In this document: positions 9,047 through 45,277 of the stretch, piece by piece
How the letters are laid out: every line of letters starts with the position of its first letter
Position numbering within the stretch: position 1 is the first letter of the stretch
From: Agromyces intestinalis
GTDB lineage: Bacteria > Actinomycetota > Actinomycetes > Actinomycetales > Microbacteriaceae
Length of the DNA: 64,000 nt
Reading direction: 5' to 3'
Assembly: GCF_008365295.1 (NCBI RefSeq)
Contig: NZ_CP043505.1
Coordinates: 1,178,001 to 1,242,000, forward strand
Notes under the pieces: model-generated
Told to the model about the DNA's origin: nothing
The model's database searches: none
What the model saw: the letters and a program-made list of their open reading frames with translations, nothing else
Position numbers and translations under genes: made by a program

Positions 9047-10525
9047 TCACATACCGGGCTCGCGGCCGCCCCGCACGGATTCGCCCGAGCCCGGCGGCCG
9101 CACCCGCGGCGCGAGCACCACCGCGATGAGCGCGATCGCGAGCGTCACGGCGAAGTCGGCCTCGAACACTCCCTGGCCCACCGCGCTGGTCACGAGCGCC
9201 GTCACGGCGAGGGCCGTCGCGGCGCCGATCGACTCGGCGATCGTGAGCGCAGCCGAGTTGAAGCCCTGCTCGGTGCGCTTGGACAGCGACAGCACTTCGA
9301 CGTTGAACCTCGGGTACATGAAGCCCATCGCCGCTCCCGCGAGCGTCCATCCGGCGAACGCGATCGCCGGGTGCAGCGTGAACAGGGCGACGGCGAACAC
9401 CGTCGCCAGCGCGACCGCCAGGGCGATCGCGGCGATGACGATCGCCTGCGTGTTCGACACCCGCTCGCCGAGCCGCCCCTGCAGCCACGACGCGAACGCC
9501 CACGAGATGCCGGCACCCGTCAGCACCGCGCCCGCGAGACTCGGACTGAAGTCGTACCGTTCCATGAACAGGTAGGGCAGGTAGATCTCGGCGCCGAAGA
9601 ACGCTCCGGCGACCACGAGCTTCTGCAGGATCGTCGCCGGCATGCCCCGCACCGCACGCAGCGTGCCGCGCGGCATCAGCGGGCGGATCGCGACCGCGAC
9701 GACCGCGATCGCGACCGCAGCGAGCACCCACTGCCACGGTGGCCCGAGCTCCTTCGCCACCGAGACGCCGAGCGCTGCCGCAGCCGCGAGCACGGACCAT
9801 CCGACCCGCCCGAGGCTCCACCGCACCGACCGATCGCCGCGTACCTGCTCCCGCACGCGCAGCAGAGGCGGCAGCACCATGGCTGCCGCGGGCAGCACGA
9901 GCACGATGACGCCGAGGAACACCCAGTGCCAGGTGAACGCCTCGACCACGAGCCCCGCGAGCGCGGGCCCGACGATCGACGGGATGACCCACGCCGCCGC
10001 GAACCCGGCGAAGACGCGGGCGCGCAGGCGTTCGGGGTAGACCCTCGCGACGATCACGTAGAGCGGCACGATCACCGCCGCCCCGCTCAGTCCGTGCACG
10101 AACCGACCGACGATGAACACGCCCATGTCGGTCGCGGTGCCGGCGATGACCAGCCCCACGACGAACAGCGCCGCCGCCGTGACGAGAGACGGCAGCGGGC
10201 CGGCACGGTCGGTCCAGTTGCCGGCGATCACCATGCCGGGAATGCCGGCCGCCATCGGAACGGCGAACGCGAGGGCGAACAGCGCCTCACCACCGAGGTC
10301 GCGCGCGACGATCGGCATGATCGTCGTCACGGCCATCGCTTCGAACGCGGCGATGAAGATCAGCGCGAACATGCCGATCGACAGCCACGTGAACGGCGGC
10401 GAGAGCGGACCGCGGGCGCGCGCGGCGGCGCGCTCGATCACCGGGTGCGATGCGTCGAGCACGGCAGGGCGATCGGATGTCTCGTGCCCCGCGGCATCCG
10501 TCGCCTGCTCGTCGTGCGCCGTCAC
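9047..10525 (-). CDS. MFS transporter of the multidrug (EmrB/QacA-like) type
   Basis: Integral membrane protein of 492 residues with about 14 hydrophobic segments after a ~45-residue cytoplasmic N-terminus. Family features are the first-helix segment FEAMAVTTIMPIVARDLGG, the loop GNWTDRAGPLPSL, and motif C-like FVHGLSGAAVIVPLYVI. It starts at GTG 10525, inside the stop of the aldo/keto reductase (GTGA overlap), so the two are co-translated. It is probably a drug or metabolite exporter with an unknown substrate. The ribosome site is GAGGAG within the end of the upstream gene. Confidence 0.85.
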   Translation of the reverse strand: MTAHDEQATDAAGHETSDRPAVLDASHPVIERAAARARGPLSPPFTWLSIGMFALIFIAAFEAMAVTTIMPIVARDLGGEALFALAFAVPMAAGIPGMVIAGNWTDRAGPLPSLVTAAALFVVGLVIAGTATDMGVFIVGRFVHGLSGAAVIVPLYVIVARVYPERLRARVFAGFAAAWVIPSIVGPALAGLVVEAFTWHWVFLGVIVLVLPAAAMVLPPLLRVREQVRGDRSVRWSLGRVGWSVLAAAAALGVSVAKELGPPWQWVLAAVAIAVVAVAIRPLMPRGTLRAVRGMPATILQKLVVAGAFFGAEIYLPYLFMERYDFSPSLAGAVLTGAGISWAFASWLQGRLGERVSNTQAIVIAAIALAVALATVFAVALFTLHPAIAFAGWTLAGAAMGFMYPRFNVEVLSLSKRTEQGFNSAALTIAESIGAATALAVTALVTSAVGQGVFEADFAVTLAIALIAVVLAPRVRPPGSGESVRGGREPGM

Positions 10526-11352
10526 ATCTCCTCGTGCGTGTTCGGGTCGGCGCCCCACAGCCGGCCGCGTTCGAGCGCGGAGATCGCCTCGACCTCTTCA
10601 GGCGCGAGCTCGAAGCCGAACACGTCGAGGTTCGACCGACGCCGGACCGCGTCGGCGGACTTCGGGATCGGAATCGTCTCGAGCTCGACGTGCCAGCGCA
10701 GCACCAGCTGGGCGGGCGTGACGCCGTGGCGCGCGGCGAGCTCGGTGATCACGGGCTCCTCGAGCAGCGCGCTGCGCTTGCCGAGCGGGCTCCAGCTCTC
10801 GGTGCGGATGCCGTGCTCGTCGTGGAAGGCGCGCAACTCGCCCTGCGGGAAGTAGGGGTGCAGTTCGACCTGGTTGACGACCGGCAGCAGGCCGGTCTCG
10901 TCACCCAGGCGGGTGAGCATCTGCTCGGTGAAGTTCGAGACCCCGATCGAGCGTGCGAGCCCCTTCTCGCGAAGCGAGATCATCGCGCGCCACGACTCGA
11001 CGTACTTGTCCACGCTCGGATTCGGCCAGTGGATGAGGTACAGGTCGATCCACTCGACGCCGAGCCGGCGCCGCGACTCCTCGAAGCTCTGCAGCGTCTC
11101 GTCGTAGCCGTGATGGCGGCCGGGCAGCTTGGTCGTGATGATGAGGTCGCTGCGGTCGACGTCGGTGCGAGCGACCGCATCGCCGATGACCTGCTCGTTT
11201 CCGTAGTTGTACGCCGTGTCGAGCAGACGGTATCCGTCGTCGATGGCGGCGAGCACCGCGTCGACGCCCGCCTCGTCGTTCAACCCGTAGGTGCCGAGCC
11301 CGAGAGCCGGGATGCGGTTGCCGTCTCGCAGGGCGTACTCGGGAGCGATCAT
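10522..11352 (-). CDS. Aldo/keto reductase
   Basis: NADPH-dependent oxidoreductase of 276 residues, the normal length for this TIM-barrel family (2,5-diketo-D-gluconate reductase-like). The catalytic tetrad is visible: Asp and Tyr in LLDTAYNYGNE (about residues 45-55), Lys in TTKLPG, and His in YLIHWPNP. The NADP-binding end shows IPIPKSADAVRRRSNLDVF. The start ATG 11352 is preceded by GGAGGA; longer in-frame starts lack family similarity. It is the first gene of a two-gene operon with the MFS exporter. Its substrate is unknown. Confidence 0.9.
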   Translation of the reverse strand: MIAPEYALRDGNRIPALGLGTYGLNDEAGVDAVLAAIDDGYRLLDTAYNYGNEQVIGDAVARTDVDRSDLIITTKLPGRHHGYDETLQSFEESRRRLGVEWIDLYLIHWPNPSVDKYVESWRAMISLREKGLARSIGVSNFTEQMLTRLGDETGLLPVVNQVELHPYFPQGELRAFHDEHGIRTESWSPLGKRSALLEEPVITELAARHGVTPAQLVLRWHVELETIPIPKSADAVRRRSNLDVFGFELAPEEVEAISALERGRLWGADPNTHEEM

Positions 11353-37797: not shown

Positions 37798-37836
37798 CGG
37801 CGACGGGCCGGGAGGTTCGCTCCCGGCCCGTCGCCG
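37798..37836 (-). terminator. Terminator of the peptidase operon
   Basis: A 17-bp stem (CGGCGACGGGCCGGGAG and its complement) with a 5-nt loop, 22 nt after the stop of the X-Pro dipeptidyl-peptidase gene. Confidence 0.8.
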
Positions 37837-37857: not shown

Positions 37858-38328
37858 TCAGATCAGGGTGAGCGTAAACACACCCGTGTAGGTGCCCGAC
37901 CGCGTCGAGCCGGGCACACCGAGCTCGAGCCCGCCCGAGCACGCGAACGCGCCCGCGCTGTGGCCGGATCCGGCGGTGCAGAGGGTGAGCGGCGCACGCA
38001 GGCCCGCACCCGGCTCGACGACCGAGCCCGGCGCCACGATCGGCGCCTCGTCCTCGACGGTCGGCAGCCCGCCCGTCTCGACCGAGGCCGCGGGCGACCA
38101 CCCGAGGTTCTCGGCGAGGATGACGCCCGACCCGCTGGTGAAGTCCGACACCTGGCCCGTGAGGTCCCACCCGGCGGCGGTGCCGCGCGAGTCGACCACG
38201 CGCACGGGGTGCAGCGCGCCCGACGTCGACTGGTCGACACCGGTGAGCGCGACCGCGTCGAGGGCGATCGGGTCGGCGCTCGAGACGGCCATCGACAGCG
38301 CACCGCCCGTAACCTCGGCGCTGATCAC
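37858..38328 (-). repeat. C-terminal surface-domain repeat, copy A
   Basis: Coding repeat of about 471 bp, very similar to 40365-40835 at DNA and protein level; by eye about 131 of 156 residues match. It encodes the WxL-like domain of the X-Pro dipeptidyl-peptidase. Confidence 0.85.
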
Positions 38329-40197
38329 CTGGTAGCCCGCGCCCGGACCGCCGGCGGCGAGGTTGGCGAGCAGCTCGCCGGCGCCGCCGACGATCGGCAG
38401 CTGCAGGTTCGAGCCGGCGGGGGCGAGGGTGAGCCGGGTGCCCGCCGCGGGGCGGATCGTGTACTCGTAGTCGGAGCTCATGACGACCAGGCCGATCTGC
38501 GATCCGGCCGGGAACACGTAGTCCTTCGGCTCGAACTCGAAGTCGAACCGGTACGACGTGCCGGGCTCGATCGGGTCGGTCACCGCGTCGGAGTTGCGGT
38601 TCTGCACGTCCATCCAGCCGCGCGTGACGATCTTCGGCGCACCGCTGGCCGGGTAGCTCACGAGCAGCGCCGTGAGGTTCGCCTTGTCGCGGTCGACCGC
38701 GAGGTCGAGCGAGACCTTCGGCGTGCCCGACAGGCGCACCGCCCCGGTGAGCTCACGCGAGCGGTAGGCGAGGCGGTTCTCGGACTGCGCCGCCTGCGCG
38801 AGCGTGGTCGCGCGCTGCTGCGCGTCGTCGACGAACGACTCGGTGCGACCCGAGGCATCCGTGCCGAAGTCGAGCCCGCCGATGCCGCCTGCCGCACCGG
38901 CCGCCGCGAGGTTCAGCGTGACGGGCGCGGTGCCCGGCTGCGGCCACTCGGGGTACTCGGTGAGCTGGTTGTTCTCGCGCACGACGTACGCCTTGGGCAG
39001 CGACTCGACGCCGTTCTGCACCTTGAAGAGGTAGCGCGTGAACCAGCGGTTCAGCAGCGTGTCGTTCGGCGCACCCCCGTGACCGCCCTGGTGCAGGTAG
39101 ATCTGGTGGGGGGTGCCGTTCTTCTTCACCGCCTCGTAGAGGTCGGACGCGTTCTTCGTCATCACGTTCCAGTCGTTCTGGCCGTGGGCGACGAGGGTCG
39201 CAGCGGTGATCTTGTCGGCGTTCGCGAGGTAGTTCCGCTCGGCCCAGAACTCGCTGCGGTCACCCGTGGCGCGATCCTGGTTGGCGCGCAGCTCGTCGAT
39301 CACGGGCTGGCAGACGGCCTGGTCGGCGCGCGTGTGCACGTAGTCGGCGAGCACGTCGAGGTCTTCGCCCTGGTAGCCGCCCGGGGCGCGCACCGCGCCG
39401 TTCGCGCGGTAGTAGTTGTACCAGTCGGAGATCGCCGAGATCGGCACGATCGCGTCGAGGCCCTTCACGCCGGTGCTCGCCACGCCGATGGGCAGCGTGC
39501 CGTTGTACGACGTGCCGATCATGCCGACGCTGCCGGTCGCCCAGTTCGCCGTCACCTCGGTGGAGCGGGCGGTCGACGTGTAGCCCTTCGCACGGCCGTT
39601 CAGCCAGTCGACGACCGCCTTGCCGCCGAGCGACTCGTTGAGCCCGCCCGAGGTCGGGCACCCCTCCGAGAAGCCGCTGCCGAGCGATTCGGCGTGCACC
39701 ACGGCGAAGCCGCGCGGCACCCAGGTCGACTCGAAGCTGCTCGAGATCTTGGGGCTGGTGCGCGGTGCGGCCGGTGCGGCGAAGCCCGGCTTCGAGGTCG
39801 GCGGGTCGCCGAGCTCGTGGTCGACCGCCCAGTTGCCGACGTTGCTGCCGCCCGCGTAGTACGGGCTCATCTCCATGATGACCGGCACCTTCAGGTTGTC
39901 GCTGTTCGTCTCGGGCACCCGGGTGACGTCGATGTGCACGAGGTCGTTGCGACCGTCGCGGTCGGAATCGACCTCGCTCTCGACCCAGAGCTCCTGGCGG
40001 ATCCACTCGCTCGTGGTCTTCGTGAAGACCGCCTGCGAGAGGCCATCCTGGAACGTCGGCGCCGCGGGCTCGGGGGCGGGGGCCGCGGTCGCCGCCATGG
40101 GGCCGGCGAGGGCGATCCCGCCGATGAGCACGGGACCGGCGATGAGCATCGCCGTCCGTCGCAGTCGACGCCGTGGGACGCCGTTCGGGTGTGGCAT
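37858..40197 (-). CDS. Secreted X-Pro dipeptidyl-peptidase (S15/CocE-like) with C-terminal WxL-like domain
   Basis: A 779-residue secreted serine peptidase. The signal peptide (MLIAGPVLIGGIALAGP... ATAAPAP) ends near residue 40. The alpha/beta-hydrolase domain has nucleophile Ser230 in GTSYNGT, an acidic HGQNDWNV and His in HQGGHGG. A jelly-roll part follows (RSRELTGAVRLSGTPKVSLDL). The family removes Xaa-Pro dipeptides. The last ~156 residues are an added domain nearly identical to that of the M64 protein at 40365-42752, with a GWDL (W-x-L) motif, two Cys and a terminal YTGVFTLTLI. ATG 40197 has AAGGAG upstream. It is the third gene of the DUF916/M64/S15 operon and is probably displayed on the cell wall. 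Confidence 0.9.
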   Translation of the reverse strand: MPHPNGVPRRRLRRTAMLIAGPVLIGGIALAGPMAATAAPAPEPAAPTFQDGLSQAVFTKTTSEWIRQELWVESEVDSDRDGRNDLVHIDVTRVPETNSDNLKVPVIMEMSPYYAGGSNVGNWAVDHELGDPPTSKPGFAAPAAPRTSPKISSSFESTWVPRGFAVVHAESLGSGFSEGCPTSGGLNESLGGKAVVDWLNGRAKGYTSTARSTEVTANWATGSVGMIGTSYNGTLPIGVASTGVKGLDAIVPISAISDWYNYYRANGAVRAPGGYQGEDLDVLADYVHTRADQAVCQPVIDELRANQDRATGDRSEFWAERNYLANADKITAATLVAHGQNDWNVMTKNASDLYEAVKKNGTPHQIYLHQGGHGGAPNDTLLNRWFTRYLFKVQNGVESLPKAYVVRENNQLTEYPEWPQPGTAPVTLNLAAAGAAGGIGGLDFGTDASGRTESFVDDAQQRATTLAQAAQSENRLAYRSRELTGAVRLSGTPKVSLDLAVDRDKANLTALLVSYPASGAPKIVTRGWMDVQNRNSDAVTDPIEPGTSYRFDFEFEPKDYVFPAGSQIGLVVMSSDYEYTIRPAAGTRLTLAPAGSNLQLPIVGGAGELLANLAAGGPGAGYQVISAEVTGGALSMAVSSADPIALDAVALTGVDQSTSGALHPVRVVDSRGTAAGWDLTGQVSDFTSGSGVILAENLGWSPAASVETGGLPTVEDEAPIVAPGSVVEPGAGLRAPLTLCTAGSGHSAGAFACSGGLELGVPGSTRSGTYTGVFTLTLI

Positions 40198-40247
40198 GTC
40201 TCTCTCCTTCATCGGGTGGTGCGAGGTGAGTCGGTGGTGCGCTGGGG

Positions 40248-40307
40248 CTGGTAGTGCGTGGTGCTGGTAGTGCGTGGTGCTGGTGCTGGTAGTGCGTGGT
40301 GCTGGTG
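40248..40307 (+). repeat. Tandem repeat of CTGGTAGTGCGTGGTG
   Basis: Three copies of the 16-bp unit CTGGTAGTGCGTGGTG, with one CTGGTG hexamer inserted before the third copy and another after it. It lies in the 167-bp gap between the two peptidase genes, upstream of the dipeptidyl-peptidase ribosome site. It is a probable variable-number repeat. Confidence 0.9.
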
Positions 40308-40326
40308 CTGCGATGGTGCGCCCCGA

Positions 40327-40355
40327 GGGCGGGCGGCCCCTGCGTCCGCCCGCCC
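40327..40355 (-). terminator. Hairpin after the M64 peptidase gene
   Basis: Stem GGGCGGGCGG with complement CCGCCCGCCC and a 9-nt loop, 9 nt after the stop at 40365. It may end or attenuate transcription before the dipeptidyl-peptidase gene. Confidence 0.6.
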
Positions 40356-40364
40356 CCGGGTCGA

Positions 40365-40835
40365 TCAGATGAGCGTGAGGGTGAGCACGCCCGTGTAGGT
40401 GCCCGACCGCGTCGAGCCCGGCACGCCGAGCTCGAGGCCGCCCGAGCAGGCGAACGCGCCCGCGCTGTGGCCGGTGCCGGCCGCGCACAGCGTGAGCGGT
40501 GCGCGAAGGCCGGCGCCCGGCGCGACGCCGGCGCCCGGGGTCACCACGGGAGCCTCCTCGTCGACGGTCGGCAGCCCGCCCGTCTCAACCGAGGCCGCCG
40601 GCGTCCAGCCGAGGTTCTCGGCGAGGATCACGCCGGTGCCGCTCGTGAAGTCCGACACCTGGCCGGTGAGGTTCCATCCGGCGGCGGTGCCGCGCGAGTC
40701 CGACACGCGCACGGCGTGCAGCGAGCCCGAGGTCGACTGGTCGGCGCCCGTGAGCACGACGGGCTCGAGCACGACCGGGTCGGTGCTCGAGACGGCCATC
40801 GACAGGGCTCCGCCCGTGACATCCGCCTGGATGAC
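40365..40835 (-). repeat. C-terminal surface-domain repeat, copy B
   Basis: Partner of the repeat at 37858-38328, in the same orientation and about 2.5 kb away. It encodes the WxL-like domain of the M64 peptidase. Such similarity between otherwise unrelated peptidases implies domain duplication or gene conversion. Confidence 0.85.
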
Positions 40836-42752
40836 CTGGCGCGGGTCGGCGTCGTCGCCGCCGAGCACGGTGACGGTGAACGCCTTGACCTCGCCGATGT
40901 TGCCGGCGGCGTCGGTCGCGCGGTACTCGACACGGTGCGTGCCGTACCCCGGCTCGCGCTCCTGGAAGGGCGAGAGCGACATGCCGCCCGTACCGAGGTT
41001 GCCGTAGATCAGGTCGTCGATGTTGGTGCCCGTCGGCGTGAAGCGGAACGGCGCATCCTTGTCGGTCGGCCAGCCGTAGTAGTTGTGCCAGCCGTCGCCG
41101 TCGAGGCGGAACTCCGTCACGAGCGCGCCGTCACGGTCGTCGGTCGCCACGAGCTTCATGTCGAACTGCTCGTTCACCACGTAGTGCGGCTCGCCGTTCG
41201 CTGCAGTGCTCGACGCGATGGGCGCGGTGATCGTGGCCTCCACGGACGGACCCGCCGCATCGACCGTCCACGTCTGCACGACTGAGCCGGCGTCGGGGAA
41301 CTCGGGGTCGGTCACGGTCGCGGTGACGGTGTGTTCGCCGGCGCCGAGGCCGAGGGTCGCGAGCGGCAGGTTCCGCTTGGCGTAGGGGTTCGGCACCGTG
41401 ACGCCGTCGACCTGCCACGCGACATCCATGATGCGTCCGTCGGGGTGGTTGGTCTCGACGTAGAGGACGTCGCTCGAGCCGGCCGCGTGGTCGGTCGTCG
41501 TCGCCTCGGTGATCTCGGGCGTCGACGGGGTCGCCTCAGGCAGCGTCGTGTCACCGACGGTCCACGTGCGGGTCTGCGTCATCGACGCGCGGGCGCGCAG
41601 CGCGGGGTCGCGCACGAACTCGGTGTTGTCGACGATCGTCGCGGTCACGGTCGCGCCTGCGGCCACGTCGAGCGTCGCGAGGTCGAGGTTGCGCTGGTTG
41701 CCGCCGAGGTCGACCGCCTCGCCGTTCACCGACCAGGTCACGTCGATCTCGTGGTACACCGGGTGCGAGGTCTCGACCCAGAGCACGGCGTCGCGCGCGA
41801 CGGTGCCCTCGGGCGTCGACGCCGGCACGAGCGGCACCTTCGACGAGATGCGCTCCGTCATGATCTCGCGGCCGACCTGGTCGAACTGGTACCCGAGGGT
41901 CTTCATCATCGAGTGCCGGCTGGGGCGCCACACGCCCGTCGAGTAGTACATGCCGCCCTCGTAGGCGCCGATCACGCCGCCCGACTCGCTGGGCTCGCCG
42001 AGCCAGCGCCACCACTTCACCTGCTGCGCCGCCATCTGGTCGACGGTGAGCTTCGTGTGGTGGGCGCTCGACGGCTCGCCGCCGGTGTAGTTGCCGGTCG
42101 TCACGCCGCGCGTGTAGTAGTCGTACTCGTCCTGCAGGCCGCCGAGCGAGTGACCGATCTCGTGCGGCGAGATGAGCGCCGACAACGCGTTGCCGCCGCT
42201 CGCGGTCGCGTACGCACCGCCCGCGCCGCCGTAGGTGTCGCTGTTCGCGAGCGCGAGGATCTGGTCGACTTTCGGCGCGAGGTTCGCGTACTGGCGGGCG
42301 ATCGTGTTGTTCACCGTGAGCAGGCGCTGCACGCTCGAAGCGCTGCATCCGCCCCAGAACGCCATCTTCAGCGGCGTGTCGCGACGCGGCGAGTCCAGCG
42401 AGTCGTCGCAGCTCACGCCCGACTCGCCCGAGACGATCTCGACCGCGTAGACGTTGAACGAGTTGCGGTAGCTCTTGTAGGGCTCGATGCTCCACATGGT
42501 CTCGAGGTGCTCGTCGACCTGCTCGCGGAACTTCGGCAGCTCGGCCGCGGTGTACCCGTCGCCGAGGATGACGAGCGAGAACCGCTCGGCCGGGTCGCCG
42601 GTGATCTGGATCGGCACGAGCGTGGCGCTGCCCACGGCGTCGTCGGCCGCGGCCGGCTGCGCACCGACGGCGACGAGCCCGCCCACGAGCAGCGGCACGG
42701 CGAGGGCGGCGACGGCGGTGCGCCGTCGGGCCGTCTTGGATGGATCGGTCAT
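40365..42752 (-). CDS. Secreted M64-family metallopeptidase with C-terminal WxL-like domain
   Basis: A 795-residue secreted protein. A signal peptide (residues ~9-37, ending AQPAAADD) precedes the M64 (IgA-peptidase-type) domain, which opens with RFSLVILGDGYTAAELPKF and carries the zinc motif HEIGHSLGGLQDEY (HExxH at 197-201). Two tandem ~75-residue Ig-like repeats follow (VLWVETSHPVYHEIDVTWSVNG and VLYVETNHPDGRIMDVAWQVDG), then a cadherin/Big-like segment, and a final ~156-residue domain with GWNL (W-x-L), two Cys and terminal YTGVLTLTLI. AGGGAG precedes ATG 42752. It sits between the DUF916 gene and the dipeptidyl-peptidase gene. Its natural substrate is unknown; IgA cleavage should not be assumed. 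Confidence 0.9.
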   Translation of the reverse strand: MTDPSKTARRRTAVAALAVPLLVGGLVAVGAQPAAADDAVGSATLVPIQITGDPAERFSLVILGDGYTAAELPKFREQVDEHLETMWSIEPYKSYRNSFNVYAVEIVSGESGVSCDDSLDSPRRDTPLKMAFWGGCSASSVQRLLTVNNTIARQYANLAPKVDQILALANSDTYGGAGGAYATASGGNALSALISPHEIGHSLGGLQDEYDYYTRGVTTGNYTGGEPSSAHHTKLTVDQMAAQQVKWWRWLGEPSESGGVIGAYEGGMYYSTGVWRPSRHSMMKTLGYQFDQVGREIMTERISSKVPLVPASTPEGTVARDAVLWVETSHPVYHEIDVTWSVNGEAVDLGGNQRNLDLATLDVAAGATVTATIVDNTEFVRDPALRARASMTQTRTWTVGDTTLPEATPSTPEITEATTTDHAAGSSDVLYVETNHPDGRIMDVAWQVDGVTVPNPYAKRNLPLATLGLGAGEHTVTATVTDPEFPDAGSVVQTWTVDAAGPSVEATITAPIASSTAANGEPHYVVNEQFDMKLVATDDRDGALVTEFRLDGDGWHNYYGWPTDKDAPFRFTPTGTNIDDLIYGNLGTGGMSLSPFQEREPGYGTHRVEYRATDAAGNIGEVKAFTVTVLGGDDADPRQVIQADVTGGALSMAVSSTDPVVLEPVVLTGADQSTSGSLHAVRVSDSRGTAAGWNLTGQVSDFTSGTGVILAENLGWTPAASVETGGLPTVDEEAPVVTPGAGVAPGAGLRAPLTLCAAGTGHSAGAFACSGGLELGVPGSTRSGTYTGVLTLTLI

Positions 42753-42829
42753 GGTCTCTCCCTGGGGGTCGAAGCCGTGCCGCGGGCGCGACGGATCGCG
42801 CCGACCGCATCGGCGTTCGTTCGGATCGT

Positions 42830-43924
42830 TCAGCGTGCGTCGACGAGGTCGCGGCGGGCGGCATCGTCGTCGCCTGCTGCGTCGTCGACCGGTTCGGGAA
42901 CCGAGTCGGATGCCTCGGGCTCGGGTTCCCGAGCCTTCGGCCGAGCCGCCTTCGCCCGACGGATCCGCTTCGCGACGGCGAATCCGGCGATGCCCAGCAG
43001 CAGAAGGGCGACGAGCGCCACGGGGTAGGGGATCGCCCAGCCCGTTCCGCTCGCCAGGTGCTCGCCGCCGACGGCGGCACCGCCGTCGAGCCCGGGTGTC
43101 AGCTCGACGGACGCGAAGACGAGCAGCGCCGGAATGATGCCGGTGAGCTGCTCCTCGACCCGGACGCTCGCGCCCGGGAGGATCTCGGCCTGCTCGCGAG
43201 CCTCTGCCTCGCCGAGCCGCCAGCCGAACGGCCCGTCGACCACCAGCTGCGATTCGCCGCCGACCCGCATGTTGCCCGAGTTCGCGAGCGTGTACGTGAC
43301 GTTCGCGGTGCCATCGAAGAGGTTCCAGCCGCCGTCGTAGGCGATGGTCACGTCGCGCACATCGAGGGCGGGCAGCTGCTCGCCCGGCACGGTGACGTAG
43401 ATGCGCGCGCCGACGCGGCGGTCGACCGCGACCTGCTGCGCACCGTCGCCCGTGGCGGAGAGCTCGCTGAGCGCGGCGACGATGCCGCCGGCGTGATCGC
43501 CCGGTGAGACGTCGGGCGGCACGGTGAGCCGGAACGGGATGTCGAGTCGGGTGCCGGGTGCGATCTCGAACACCTCGTCGCCGCCGACACCGACCCAGGC
43601 ACCGACGTCCTCCGACTCGGTGCCGGCGGGCGGCAGCGTGAAGGCGCCGTCGGCGGTGGTCGTGGCATCCATCGCGTAGACCTTGACCGAGATGGGCGCC
43701 GCACCGAGGTTCGAGACGCCGACGTAGTCGGTGACGGTCTCGCCCGGGCCGAGCGTGTACTCGAACGCGCCGCGGCCGTCGGGCCCCTGCTCGCTCGACG
43801 GCTGCACGCCCCAGATCGCCTCGTCGACCTCCTCGGCGTGCGCGGCGACGCCGCCGCCCAGCATGAGCAGGGTCGTGATCGCCGCGGCCGCAGCCGCCCT
43901 GCGGGTCATGTTCGTCGTCGACAT
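42830..43924 (-). CDS. DUF916/WxL-interacting-protein-like membrane-anchored surface protein
   Basis: A 364-residue protein. The signal peptide ends near GGGVAAHAEE (about residue 30). The extracellular part (30-185) matches the DUF916 (WxL-protein peptidoglycan-binding) pattern: WGVQPSSEQGPDGRGAFEYTLGPG, VTDYVGVSNLG, FRLTVPPDVSPGDHAGGIVAAL. A second beta-rich part (190-285) resembles the DUF3324 half, with ANVTYTLANSGNMRVGGES. One membrane helix (PYPVALVALLLLGIAGFAV, about 300-318) and a basic then acidic cytoplasmic tail finish it. ATG 43924 has GGAGGGAG upstream. As first gene of the operon with two WxL-like peptidases, it probably anchors or displays them on the cell wall. Confidence 0.85.
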   Translation of the reverse strand: MSTTNMTRRAAAAAAITTLLMLGGGVAAHAEEVDEAIWGVQPSSEQGPDGRGAFEYTLGPGETVTDYVGVSNLGAAPISVKVYAMDATTTADGAFTLPPAGTESEDVGAWVGVGGDEVFEIAPGTRLDIPFRLTVPPDVSPGDHAGGIVAALSELSATGDGAQQVAVDRRVGARIYVTVPGEQLPALDVRDVTIAYDGGWNLFDGTANVTYTLANSGNMRVGGESQLVVDGPFGWRLGEAEAREQAEILPGASVRVEEQLTGIIPALLVFASVELTPGLDGGAAVGGEHLASGTGWAIPYPVALVALLLLGIAGFAVAKRIRRAKAARPKAREPEPEASDSVPEPVDDAAGDDDAARRDLVDAR

Positions 43925-44047: not shown

Positions 44048-45277
44048 TCAGACCCGTTCGGCCGGGTCGGCCTCGACCTTCATGAGCATGATCGCGAGGT
44101 GCAGGCCCAGCCGCTCGACGCCGTTCTGCAGGTCGATGCCGAGGATGCGCTCGAGCCGGCCGAGCCGGTGGTACAGCGAGGTGCGATGCACGTTGAGTCG
44201 CGCCGCCGTCTCTTGTGCGCGCCCGCCGAGCGCGAGGTACGCCTCGGCGGTCTCGAGGAGCATCCGGCCGTCGCGCTCGCCCAGCAGCCGGTCGAGGCCG
44301 AGCTGGAAGTCCGCCGCGACCAGGCCCGCAGCGGCCGCGCTGTCGAGCCCGCGGTGGATGCCGAGCCGATCCCAGTGCGCGATCGGCCCCGCCAACCCGA
44401 AGGCGAGCGAGATGCGCTCGGCCCGCTCCGCCTCGGCCGCGCTCGCGCGCGCGGCGCCGAGCAGGTCTCGCGCGCCGCCGATCGAGACGAGCGGAGCCGC
44501 GGCCGCACCGACCGGCGCGAAGACGGCCGTCGCGGCGTCGAGCAGTGCACCGGCCGCGTGGTCGGAATCCACGGCCGTGCCGTCGCCCGCACGGGCCTGC
44601 GGCACGAGGAAGACCGCACGATCGCCGCGCACGAGGTGCAGCGCCCCGCGCAGGACCGACCGCTGGGTCGCCGTGCGCGCGGAGCGCTCGAGGAGTTCGC
44701 GAGCGTCGTCGGCGTCGACGCCGCTGCCGGCGCGCACGCTGAGCTGGATGGCCCGCACGCCCGCGTCATCGGGAAAGAATCCCTCCTCGATGATCGCCCC
44801 GGCGGACCGCGCCCGGGCCTTGGCGTTGCCGAACAGCAGGTCGCGGGTGTGCTCGTTCATCAGCGCGATCTCGAGATCGTGCTGGGCGCGGGCCCTCGTC
44901 CACTCCTCGGCCAGGCGTTCGGCGAGGTGGTCGGCGCGCTCGATCTCGTCGACGCCCATGCGGTCGGGTGCGTCGATGAACCACAGGAAGCCCATCGATT
45001 CGTCGGCGCGCCGGATCGGCACGAGCAGGCGGGGCAGCATGCCGAGCTCGGCGTTCTGCGGGACCCTCGTGGAGACCTTGGCGTTGTAGACGCCGAGCCG
45101 CAGCAGCCACGAGCTCACGGCCGGCCCGGCGTGGTGCTGCAGGATCGTCTTGCGCCGTACCTCGTCGATGACCCCGGACTGCGGGCTGTACGCGACGACG
45201 CGTTGGCGCTGGTCCTCGAGCACGGCCGGTCGGCCCACCACTCTCGCGATGTGGTTGACCAGCTGATTCACGCTCAT
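44048..45277 (-). CDS. PucR/CdaR-family transcriptional regulator
   Basis: A 409-residue regulator with an N-terminal sensor region (GAF-like, VLEDQRQRVVAYSPQSGVID), a GGDEF-like middle (VSIGGARDLLGAARASAAEAERA) and a C-terminal helix-turn-helix: ETAEAYLALGGRAQETAARLNVHRTSLYHRLGRLERILGIDL. This C-terminal arrangement defines the PucR/CdaR group, which often controls nitrogen-compound use. Its target is not evident. It lies after the WxL-like operon promoter region and divergent from the DHA2 efflux operon, 157 bp away. A TAGACT element at 45308-45313 on the minus strand could be its -10. Confidence 0.85.
   Translation of the reverse strand: MSVNQLVNHIARVVGRPAVLEDQRQRVVAYSPQSGVIDEVRRKTILQHHAGPAVSSWLLRLGVYNAKVSTRVPQNAELGMLPRLLVPIRRADESMGFLWFIDAPDRMGVDEIERADHLAERLAEEWTRARAQHDLEIALMNEHTRDLLFGNAKARARSAGAIIEEGFFPDDAGVRAIQLSVRAGSGVDADDARELLERSARTATQRSVLRGALHLVRGDRAVFLVPQARAGDGTAVDSDHAAGALLDAATAVFAPVGAAAAPLVSIGGARDLLGAARASAAEAERAERISLAFGLAGPIAHWDRLGIHRGLDSAAAAGLVAADFQLGLDRLLGERDGRMLLETAEAYLALGGRAQETAARLNVHRTSLYHRLGRLERILGIDLQNGVERLGLHLAIMLMKVEADPAERV

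What the first reader, a model, noticed from the sequence alone, without database searches (positions are those of the whole stretch)
37858..43924. Actinobacterial WxL-like cell-surface display operon
Seen: one operon encodes a DUF916-like membrane-anchored protein and two secreted peptidases of unrelated folds (M64 and S15). Both peptidases end in a ~156-residue domain with a proximal W-x-L motif (GWDL/GWNL) and a terminal YTGVxTLTLI strand. Known: in Firmicutes, WxL domains bind peptidoglycan and are encoded with DUF916/DUF3324 WxL-interacting proteins. Inference: this is a diverged actinobacterial counterpart that displays proteolytic enzymes on the wall. The distal motif has Leu where Firmicutes have Trp, and two Cys could form a disulfide.
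Basis: partly seen in the sequence, partly recalled or inferred. Interest (0 to 1): 0.78.

Follow-up and report, generated by a model that had tools for sequence, protein, structure and literature searches.

The report
Actinobacterial WxL-type enzyme-display operon
A bacterium of the Actinobacteria appears to hold two secreted protein-cutting enzymes at its surface by plugging near-identical tails into a membrane-anchored holder, a scheme described in print mainly from lactic acid bacteria and their relatives.

The parts
42830..43924 (-). WxLIP-like protein (364 aa): signal peptide, DUF916/PGBD-like Ig domain (about residues 36-182), second Ig-like domain (about 186-298), TM helix (about 300-326), K/R-rich tail
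40365..42752 (-). M64 (IgA-peptidase family) metallopeptidase, 795 aa, signal-like N-terminus, HEIGH zinc motif, C-terminal WxL-like domain
   Evidence: PF09471 7.9e-46; HEIGHSLGG; translation
40365..40838 (-). WxL-like domain of the M64 peptidase; D-S-R-G-T-A-A-G-W-N-L proximal motif, Y-T-G-V-L-T-L-T-L-I terminal strand
   Evidence: PF13731 8.3e-4, under cut-off; hhalign of its alignment A3 to Bacillota WxL E 5.9e-11; AF2 pLDDT 88.5, all-beta
37858..40197 (-). S15 Xaa-Pro dipeptidyl-peptidase, 779 aa, signal-like N-terminus, GTSYNG motif, C-terminal WxL-like domain
   Evidence: PF02129 1.6e-63, PF08530 5.3e-38; NF003780 729.9 bits against cut-off 642
37858..38334 (-). WxL-like domain of the S15 peptidase, 84% identical to that of the M64 peptidase
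   Evidence: PF13731 0.019, under cut-off
37798..37836 (.). Perfect 17-bp inverted repeat with 5-nt loop just 3' of the S15 stop: probable terminator hairpin of the operon
40215..40363 (.). M64-S15 intergenic stretch: GTGGTGCTG-type tandem repeat (40215-40320) and 18-nt, 89% inverted repeat (40319-40336/40346-40363); possible attenuator or processing site

Best explanation
This is an actinobacterial, enzyme-carrying form of the WxL/WxLIP surface system. Signal peptides export all three proteins (read from sequence). The WxLIP stays in the cell membrane through its C-terminal helix and basic tail, with two Ig-like domains outside. The WxL-like tails of the M64 endopeptidase and the S15 X-prolyl dipeptidase dock onto the WxLIP, most likely by the beta-strand insertion predicted for Enterococcus WxLIP/WxL, so both enzymes are held at the cell surface instead of being lost. 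The endopeptidase would cut proline-rich protein outside the cell and the dipeptidase would trim the fragments close to the uptake machinery. The homology and the gene pairing are shown here; docking, surface location and substrate are inferred.
Against: No binding or localisation data. The second WxL motif is absent (0 of 85) and the window domains do not reach the PF13731 cut-off. The second WxLIP domain has no PF11797 match; NPCBM_assoc scores there instead. The fold search of the tail lists pilin domains and the N-terminal domain of GH123 enzymes, not a WxL chain, in the 50 rows shown. hhalign of WxLIP covers only the first domain, prob 61.5. Co-diversification can come from linkage alone. 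The homogenised tails are seen at one depth only: between window and the closer G037 the orthologous tails (88, 84%) are as alike as the tails within an operon (84, 80%), and in G021 the two tails are only 58% alike. 11 of 18 fetched genus copies that lacked an adjacent PF06030 gene have no WxLIP in the fetched stretch. Only 14 of 32 scanned carriers are recognisable enzymes; 6 show only Ig-like or fn3-type domains and 11 no Pfam family.
Confidence: 0.72

Rival explanations
1. The WxL-like domain anchors the enzymes by binding peptidoglycan itself, as proposed for Bacillota WxL; WxLIP only stabilises or caps it.
For: Peptidoglycan binding of WxL domains and predicted GlcNAc binding of WxLIP are reported (PMC10599100 parts 1-2 of 4, PMC5817068 passages). 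Domain copies occur without a WxLIP in the fetched stretch: 11 of 18 fetched.
Against: Tight pairing and co-diversification with WxLIP and, at one depth, tails kept alike within an operon point to a protein partner. All 18 of the 41 genus genomes with the domain also have a WxLIP somewhere (15; G005, G011, G038).
Confidence: 0.18
2. The tail is a carbohydrate-binding or generic beta-sandwich module that targets substrate; the DUF916 gene is only a co-regulated neighbour.
Against: The same tail is fused to proteins with unrelated substrates: peptidases, GH18, phosphatases, GDPD, and an HtaA-domain protein. Homology to WxL. Pairing 32 of 36.
Confidence: 0.06
3. It is a host-adhesion or virulence system, the role usually given to WxL loci, with the M64 'IgA peptidase' acting on antibodies and the WxLIP helix inserting into host membranes.
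For: The M64 family name; host-side roles and host-membrane insertion proposed for WxL/WxLIP (PMC10599100). 6 of 32 scanned carriers show only Ig-like or fn3-type domains, as adhesins do.
Against: 14 of 32 scanned carriers are hydrolases of protein, chitin or phosphate compounds. 55 of 61 WxLIP helices end in a K/R-rich tail, the usual mark of a helix left in the bacterium's own membrane (rule recalled). The named carriers are not known to me as animal pathogens (recalled).
Confidence: 0.04

Closest known systems
WxL domain (PF13731) of Bacillota large WxL / CscC proteins
   Same: C-terminal all-beta domain of secreted multi-domain proteins; D-x-R...W-x-[LV] proximal motif; Y...T terminal strand; adjacent DUF916 gene
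   Different: Distal W-x-L reads L-T-L (no Trp in 85 of 85); an L-G-W Trp in 68 of 85 that the 6 Bacillota domains aligned here lack; under the family cut-off; passengers are often enzymes (14 of 32 scanned); a minority has a Cys pair
WxLIP (DUF916-DUF3324-TMH), solved as EfmWxLIP1 (PDB 9i25, 9i1y; listing seen, paper not read)
   Different: No PF11797 match; 12-14% identity; in the window operon the WxLIP gene is first rather than last (3 of 32 paired genes)
cscABCD clusters of Lactobacillus plantarum (Siezen 2006, PMC1534035, passages)
   Same: cscA-like (WxLIP), cscB-like (small WxL) and cscC-like (large WxL) genes; a small LPxTG frame 3' of WxLIP in 3 loci and a longer one in a fourth, of 61 WxLIPs examined
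   Different: The window operon has one A and two C only; small WxL-like copies often follow large enzymes with another C-terminal domain (A6; 26 of 57 tail matches)
Ang-2 / HupE-UreJ_2 neighbourhoods with metallophosphatases and DUF916 (PMC12537917, passages)
   Same: The purple-acid-phosphatase locus of this genome (L009) has a DUF916 gene and, by my reading of the translation, a HupE/UreJ_2-like gene beside it
   Different: In the passages seen, that paper notes DUF916 as a neighbour; a WxL-like tail on the phosphatase is not mentioned there
Chaperone-usher chaperone/pilin pairs (CfaA-CfaE, 6k73)

Membership tests
WxL domain (PF13731) | Profile match at or above curated cut-off (25 bits) | tested here: not met
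   19.8 and 15.4 bits for the two window proteins; relatives in 4 of 26 genomes and the L022 GH18 do reach it
WxL domain (PF13731) | Homology to known WxL domains over the whole domain | tested here: met
   hhalign E 5.9e-11, prob 97.1, 149 of 158 columns; controls 0.07
WxL domain (PF13731) | Proximal W-x-L preceded by D-x-R-G / GTxAG turn | tested here: met
   DSRGTAAGW[ND]L in both; D 82/85, R 80/85, W 85/85 in relatives, though W+2 is V in 46 and L in 32
WxL domain (PF13731) | Distal W-x-L motif (YxxxLTWxL) | tested here: not met
   Leu at the Trp position in the window; Trp in 0 of 85
WxL domain (PF13731) | C-terminal position in a secreted protein | tested here: met
   secretion read from the N-termini
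WxL domain (PF13731) | Encoded beside DUF916 (WxLIP) | tested here: met
   32 of 36 PF06030 genes; 18 of 21 genomes; seen from the domain, 35 of 57
WxL domain (PF13731) | Same fold as a solved WxL domain | tested here: inconclusive
   Model pLDDT 88.5; listed rows are pilin domains and GH123; no WxL chain among 50 shown
WxL domain (PF13731) | Binds peptidoglycan | not testable with these tools
   needs protein
WxLIP | DUF916/PGBD domain (PF06030) | tested here: met
   Borderline: 25.7 bits, under 27.3, by protein scan; 28.1 bits, over it, by genome scan; fold match to 9i25_C covers it
WxLIP | DUF3324/HBD second domain (PF11797) | tested here: inconclusive
   No PF11797 hit, but the model aligns over both domains of 9i25_C, residues 35-299
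WxLIP | C-terminal transmembrane helix | tested here: met
   helix 300-326 in the model; mean hydropathy 2.33 and 7 K/R in the 12 residues after it
WxLIP | Binds WxL | not testable with these tools
   No complex modelling offered; co-diversification only
WxL cluster (definition in PMC10599100) | At least one WxLIP plus two WxL proteins within four genes | tested here: met
   Window operon: one WxLIP-like and two proteins with WxL-like tails, with the qualification above on the tails; no LPxTG gene found 3' of this WxLIP

The most novel reading that the evidence does not exclude
The WxLIP/WxL pair is a donor-strand socket of chaperone/pilin type, kept in the bacterium's own membrane. In Actinobacteria it is the base of a plug-in enzyme array. 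Some enzymes (as in this window) carry the plug themselves; other, mainly glycan-degrading enzymes carry a second, unnamed C-terminal domain (A6, two invariant Cys) that docks on small WxL adaptors, giving a cellulosome-like surface assembly with few anchors and up to 25 client proteins per genome.
Probability: 0.2. Interest if true: 0.85.

Novelty: new variant of a known kind. Interest (0 to 1): 0.6.

Why it matters
The WxL papers I saw (parts or passages) describe the system mainly from Bacilli and discuss it largely as adhesion and virulence. Here the same pairing runs through Actinomycetota with a re-worked motif and often carries hydrolases for protein, chitin and phosphate compounds. If true, that makes it a general enzyme-display socket. 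It makes the proposal that the WxLIP helix enters host membranes directly testable, and it offers further organisms in which to work out how WxL proteins are held. In the plasmid collection none of 10 records with a close relative of the tail names WxL there (5 RICIN-domain, 3 hypothetical, 2 without a listed gene; that gene table is incomplete), so such proteins may be under-recognised.

Tried and rejected
Rejected: (1) chance resemblance of two W-x-L-like tails: excluded. (2) Generic CBM: carriers have unrelated substrates. (3) The Cys pair as a defining trait: 16-17 of 85 have Cys at those columns. (4) Host-membrane insertion of the WxLIP helix: K/R-rich tails in 55 of 61.

Led nowhere: sequence searches of PDB with the tail profile A3, with the intermediate set A5 and with one intermediate alone gave no WxL chain. 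The fold search of the tail did not list the WxL chain of 9i25 among its 50 rows, which is not evidence of a different fold. Of the carriers scanned with Pfam at 1e-3, 7 of 10 and 3 of 10 gave no family (and 1 of 10 at 0.01); for L096, L101 and L102 an A6-type gene lies in another frame just 5' of the tail, so the long frame scanned there is probably not coding and the tail protein is small. The scanned 32 are a chosen set with orthologues in it, not a random sample. The genome-contig scan was made with a single sequence, not an alignment, and found only 8 loci.

Rows dropped before counts: one search kept all 36 PF06030 and 57 tail matches. Of the 22 tails without PF06030 within 6 kb, four truncated ones (G039:C14, G039:C16, G026:C151, G020:C6) were not fetched, so 18 were looked at. 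One search used 61 of 67 WxLIP hits (matched length at least 250). One search's 85 copies were found with models of the same family, so conservation of the proximal Trp is partly by selection. The 18 of 21 was counted by hand from the rows. In this check I mended the passenger counts and the limits of the tail-homogenisation argument, lowered the best explanation from 0.75 to 0.72 for that, and lowered the rivals so that the odds do not exceed one.
Full report
What is there. The window is 1178001-1242000 of a 3.80-Mb single-contig genome. On the minus strand three genes follow one another: a 364-aa DUF916 protein (43924-42830), a 795-aa M64 peptidase (42752-40365) and a 779-aa S15 peptidase (40197-37858). 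Gaps are 77 and 167 bp. A perfect 17-bp inverted repeat follows the S15 stop (37798-37836). Pfam gives M64 7.9e-46, S15 1.6e-63 and PepX_C 5.3e-38; NCBIfam places the S15 protein in an Xaa-Pro dipeptidyl-peptidase subfamily above its cut-off. HEIGH and GTSYNG are intact. Both enzymes end in a 157-159-residue domain, 84% identical between them.

Own genome. A search with that domain finds five strong copies (E below 1e-6; two more at 0.02 and 0.4 were set aside), and PF06030 finds four DUF916 genes. The five copies lie beside the four DUF916 genes: the window operon (two copies); a GH18 chitinase with the tail beside a DUF916 gene (L008 6898-8946 and 5674-6819); a small protein that is little more than the domain, between a GH20 gene and a DUF916 gene (L008 11296 onwards, 10112-11230); and a purple-acid phosphatase with the tail beside a DUF916 gene (L009 6719-9187 and 5511-6701).

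Is it WxL? PF13731 touches both window tails below its cut-off. Four further lines bear on it. (a) Relatives found with the five-row alignment of the own-genome copies in distant Actinomycetota reach the PF13731 cut-off at the same places in 4 of 26 genomes searched, best 54.1 bits, and 11 of 12 members of a hand-picked intermediate alignment match it at E up to 0.01. (b) One such intermediate finds Bacillota proteins, several annotated as WxL, by tblastn. (c) hhalign of 12 actinobacterial tails against 6 Bacillota WxL domains gives prob 97.1, E 5.9e-11 over 149 of 158 columns; two control pairs give 0.07. (d) The residues that PMC9772566 lists for WxL (Asp W-8, Arg W-6, the turn before the Trp; passages) are present: D 82/85, R 80/85, W 85/85. 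The distal Trp is missing in 85 of 85, while an L-G-W Trp that the six Bacillota domains lack is present in 68 of 85. So it is homologous to WxL but is a variant that fails one defining feature.

Co-occurrence. In 41 genomes of the genus PF06030 gives 36 genes in 15 genomes, and the tail gives 57 matches in 18 genomes. 32 of 36 PF06030 genes have a tail within 6 kb, all on the same strand, against 0.6 expected; 29 of the 32 have the tail gene 5', and three, the window's among them, only 3'. 35 of 57 tails have a PF06030 gene within 6 kb. Of the 22 others, 18 were fetched: six have a WxLIP that PF06030 missed at E 0.001 but my own model detects, one has a short WxLIP-like remnant, and 11 have none in the fetched stretch. 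Across the phylum 23 of 296 genomes have the tail. Of the 21 of these that are not G000 or G007, 18 have PF06030 adjacent (counted by hand), G194 has one by my model, G076 has one on another contig and G320 none at E 0.01.

Signs of a working pair. Distances among 61 tails and their cognate WxLIPs correlate at r 0.83; among 48 within-genome paralogue pairs r is 0.82 and none of 2000 within-genome re-pairings reaches it. Linkage could explain part or all of this. The two tails of one operon are 84% (window), 87% (Compostimonas) and 80% (G037) identical. Between window and Compostimonas the orthologous tails are only 65 and 63% identical while the catalytic parts are 76 and 75% identical. So at that depth tails changed faster than their enzymes yet were kept alike within an operon, as expected if both must fit one partner. 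Against this, between window and the closer G037 orthologous tails (88, 84%) are no less alike than the tails within an operon, and in G021 the two tails are only 58% alike. The argument rests on two lineages.

Passengers. 32 tail-bearing proteins were scanned with Pfam (2, 10 each). 14 are recognisable enzymes: M64 (3), S15 (2), GH18 (3), purple acid phosphatase (4), alkaline phosphatase, GDPD. One is an HtaA-domain protein (heme-binding by recall), 6 show only Ig-like, TIG or fn3-type domains, and 11 gave no family. The identified ones read as nutrient harvesting. For the window operon an endopeptidase plus an X-prolyl dipeptidase suggests use of proline-rich protein (inference).

A second layer. 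Some tail copies are small WxL-like proteins encoded directly after large secreted proteins that end in another shared domain of about 95 residues with two invariant Cys (alignment A6, 11 rows). 26 of 57 tail matches have an A6 domain within 1.2 kb 5' on the same strand; none of the genus carriers with a Pfam-identified passenger does. There are 128 A6 copies in 24 of 41 genomes: 105 in the 11 genomes with such a pair, 12 in the 7 other genomes with a tail, and 11 in the 23 genomes without a tail. Pfam and NCBIfam have no consistent match. Five A6 proteins scanned carry GH20 (two), alpha-L-fucosidase, GSDH with ThuA and CBM6, and pectate-lyase-like domains. A docking role is a hypothesis; the 11 copies in genomes without the tail speak against strict dependence.

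Novelty. Searches for WxL or DUF916 together with Actinobacteria, Actinomycetota, Actinomyce-, Microbacterium or Streptomyces listed no title or start of abstract on an actinobacterial WxL system; of these papers I looked at passages of PMC5817068, PMC4449606 (WxL there is in Lactobacillus) and PMC12537917, which notes DUF916 near metallophosphatases in Ang-2 neighbourhoods. A search for WxL with donor strand listed one unrelated review. PMC9772566 says over 91% of 938 WxL sequences are in Firmicutes (section read), so some others were already counted. Most subscription papers are not in the library. Hence: new variant of a known kind.

Noticed in passing
L008:12052-12351 and alignment A6 (L107, L108, L109, L114, L115, L119, L098): Unnamed ~95-aa C-terminal domain with two invariant Cys on large secreted, often glycan-active proteins; 26 of 57 tail matches have it just 5'; 128 copies in 24 of 41 genomes; no consistent Pfam or NCBIfam family.
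   Followed up: partly
L091, L092, L102 (3' of WxLIP); L023: Small LPxTG-type reading frames directly after the WxLIP gene (longer in L023), like cscD of Lactobacillus; 4 of 61 WxLIPs.
   Followed up: partly
window 37858-38334 and 40365-40838; L020; L082; L083: Two tails of one operon are 84% (window) and 87% (Compostimonas) alike while orthologous tails of the two are 63-65% and catalytic parts 75-76% alike: old homogenisation in two lineages; not seen in G021 (58%) nor between window and G037.
   Followed up: yes
L009 9318-10718: HupE/UreJ_2-like membrane protein gene (my reading of the translation) beside the tail-bearing phosphatase, like the Ang-2 neighbourhoods of PMC12537917.
   Followed up: no
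window 44048-45277: Regulator-like gene (PucR/CdaR type by my reading) 123 bp upstream of WxLIP on the same strand; may control the operon.
   Followed up: no
window 40215-40363: GTGGTGCTG-type tandem repeats and an imperfect inverted repeat between the M64 and S15 genes.
   Followed up: no
actinobacterial tails, position 79 of the M64 tail: An L-G-W Trp present in 68 of 85 tails, all of which lack the distal WxL Trp; possible compensating swap, not tested in the model.
   Followed up: no
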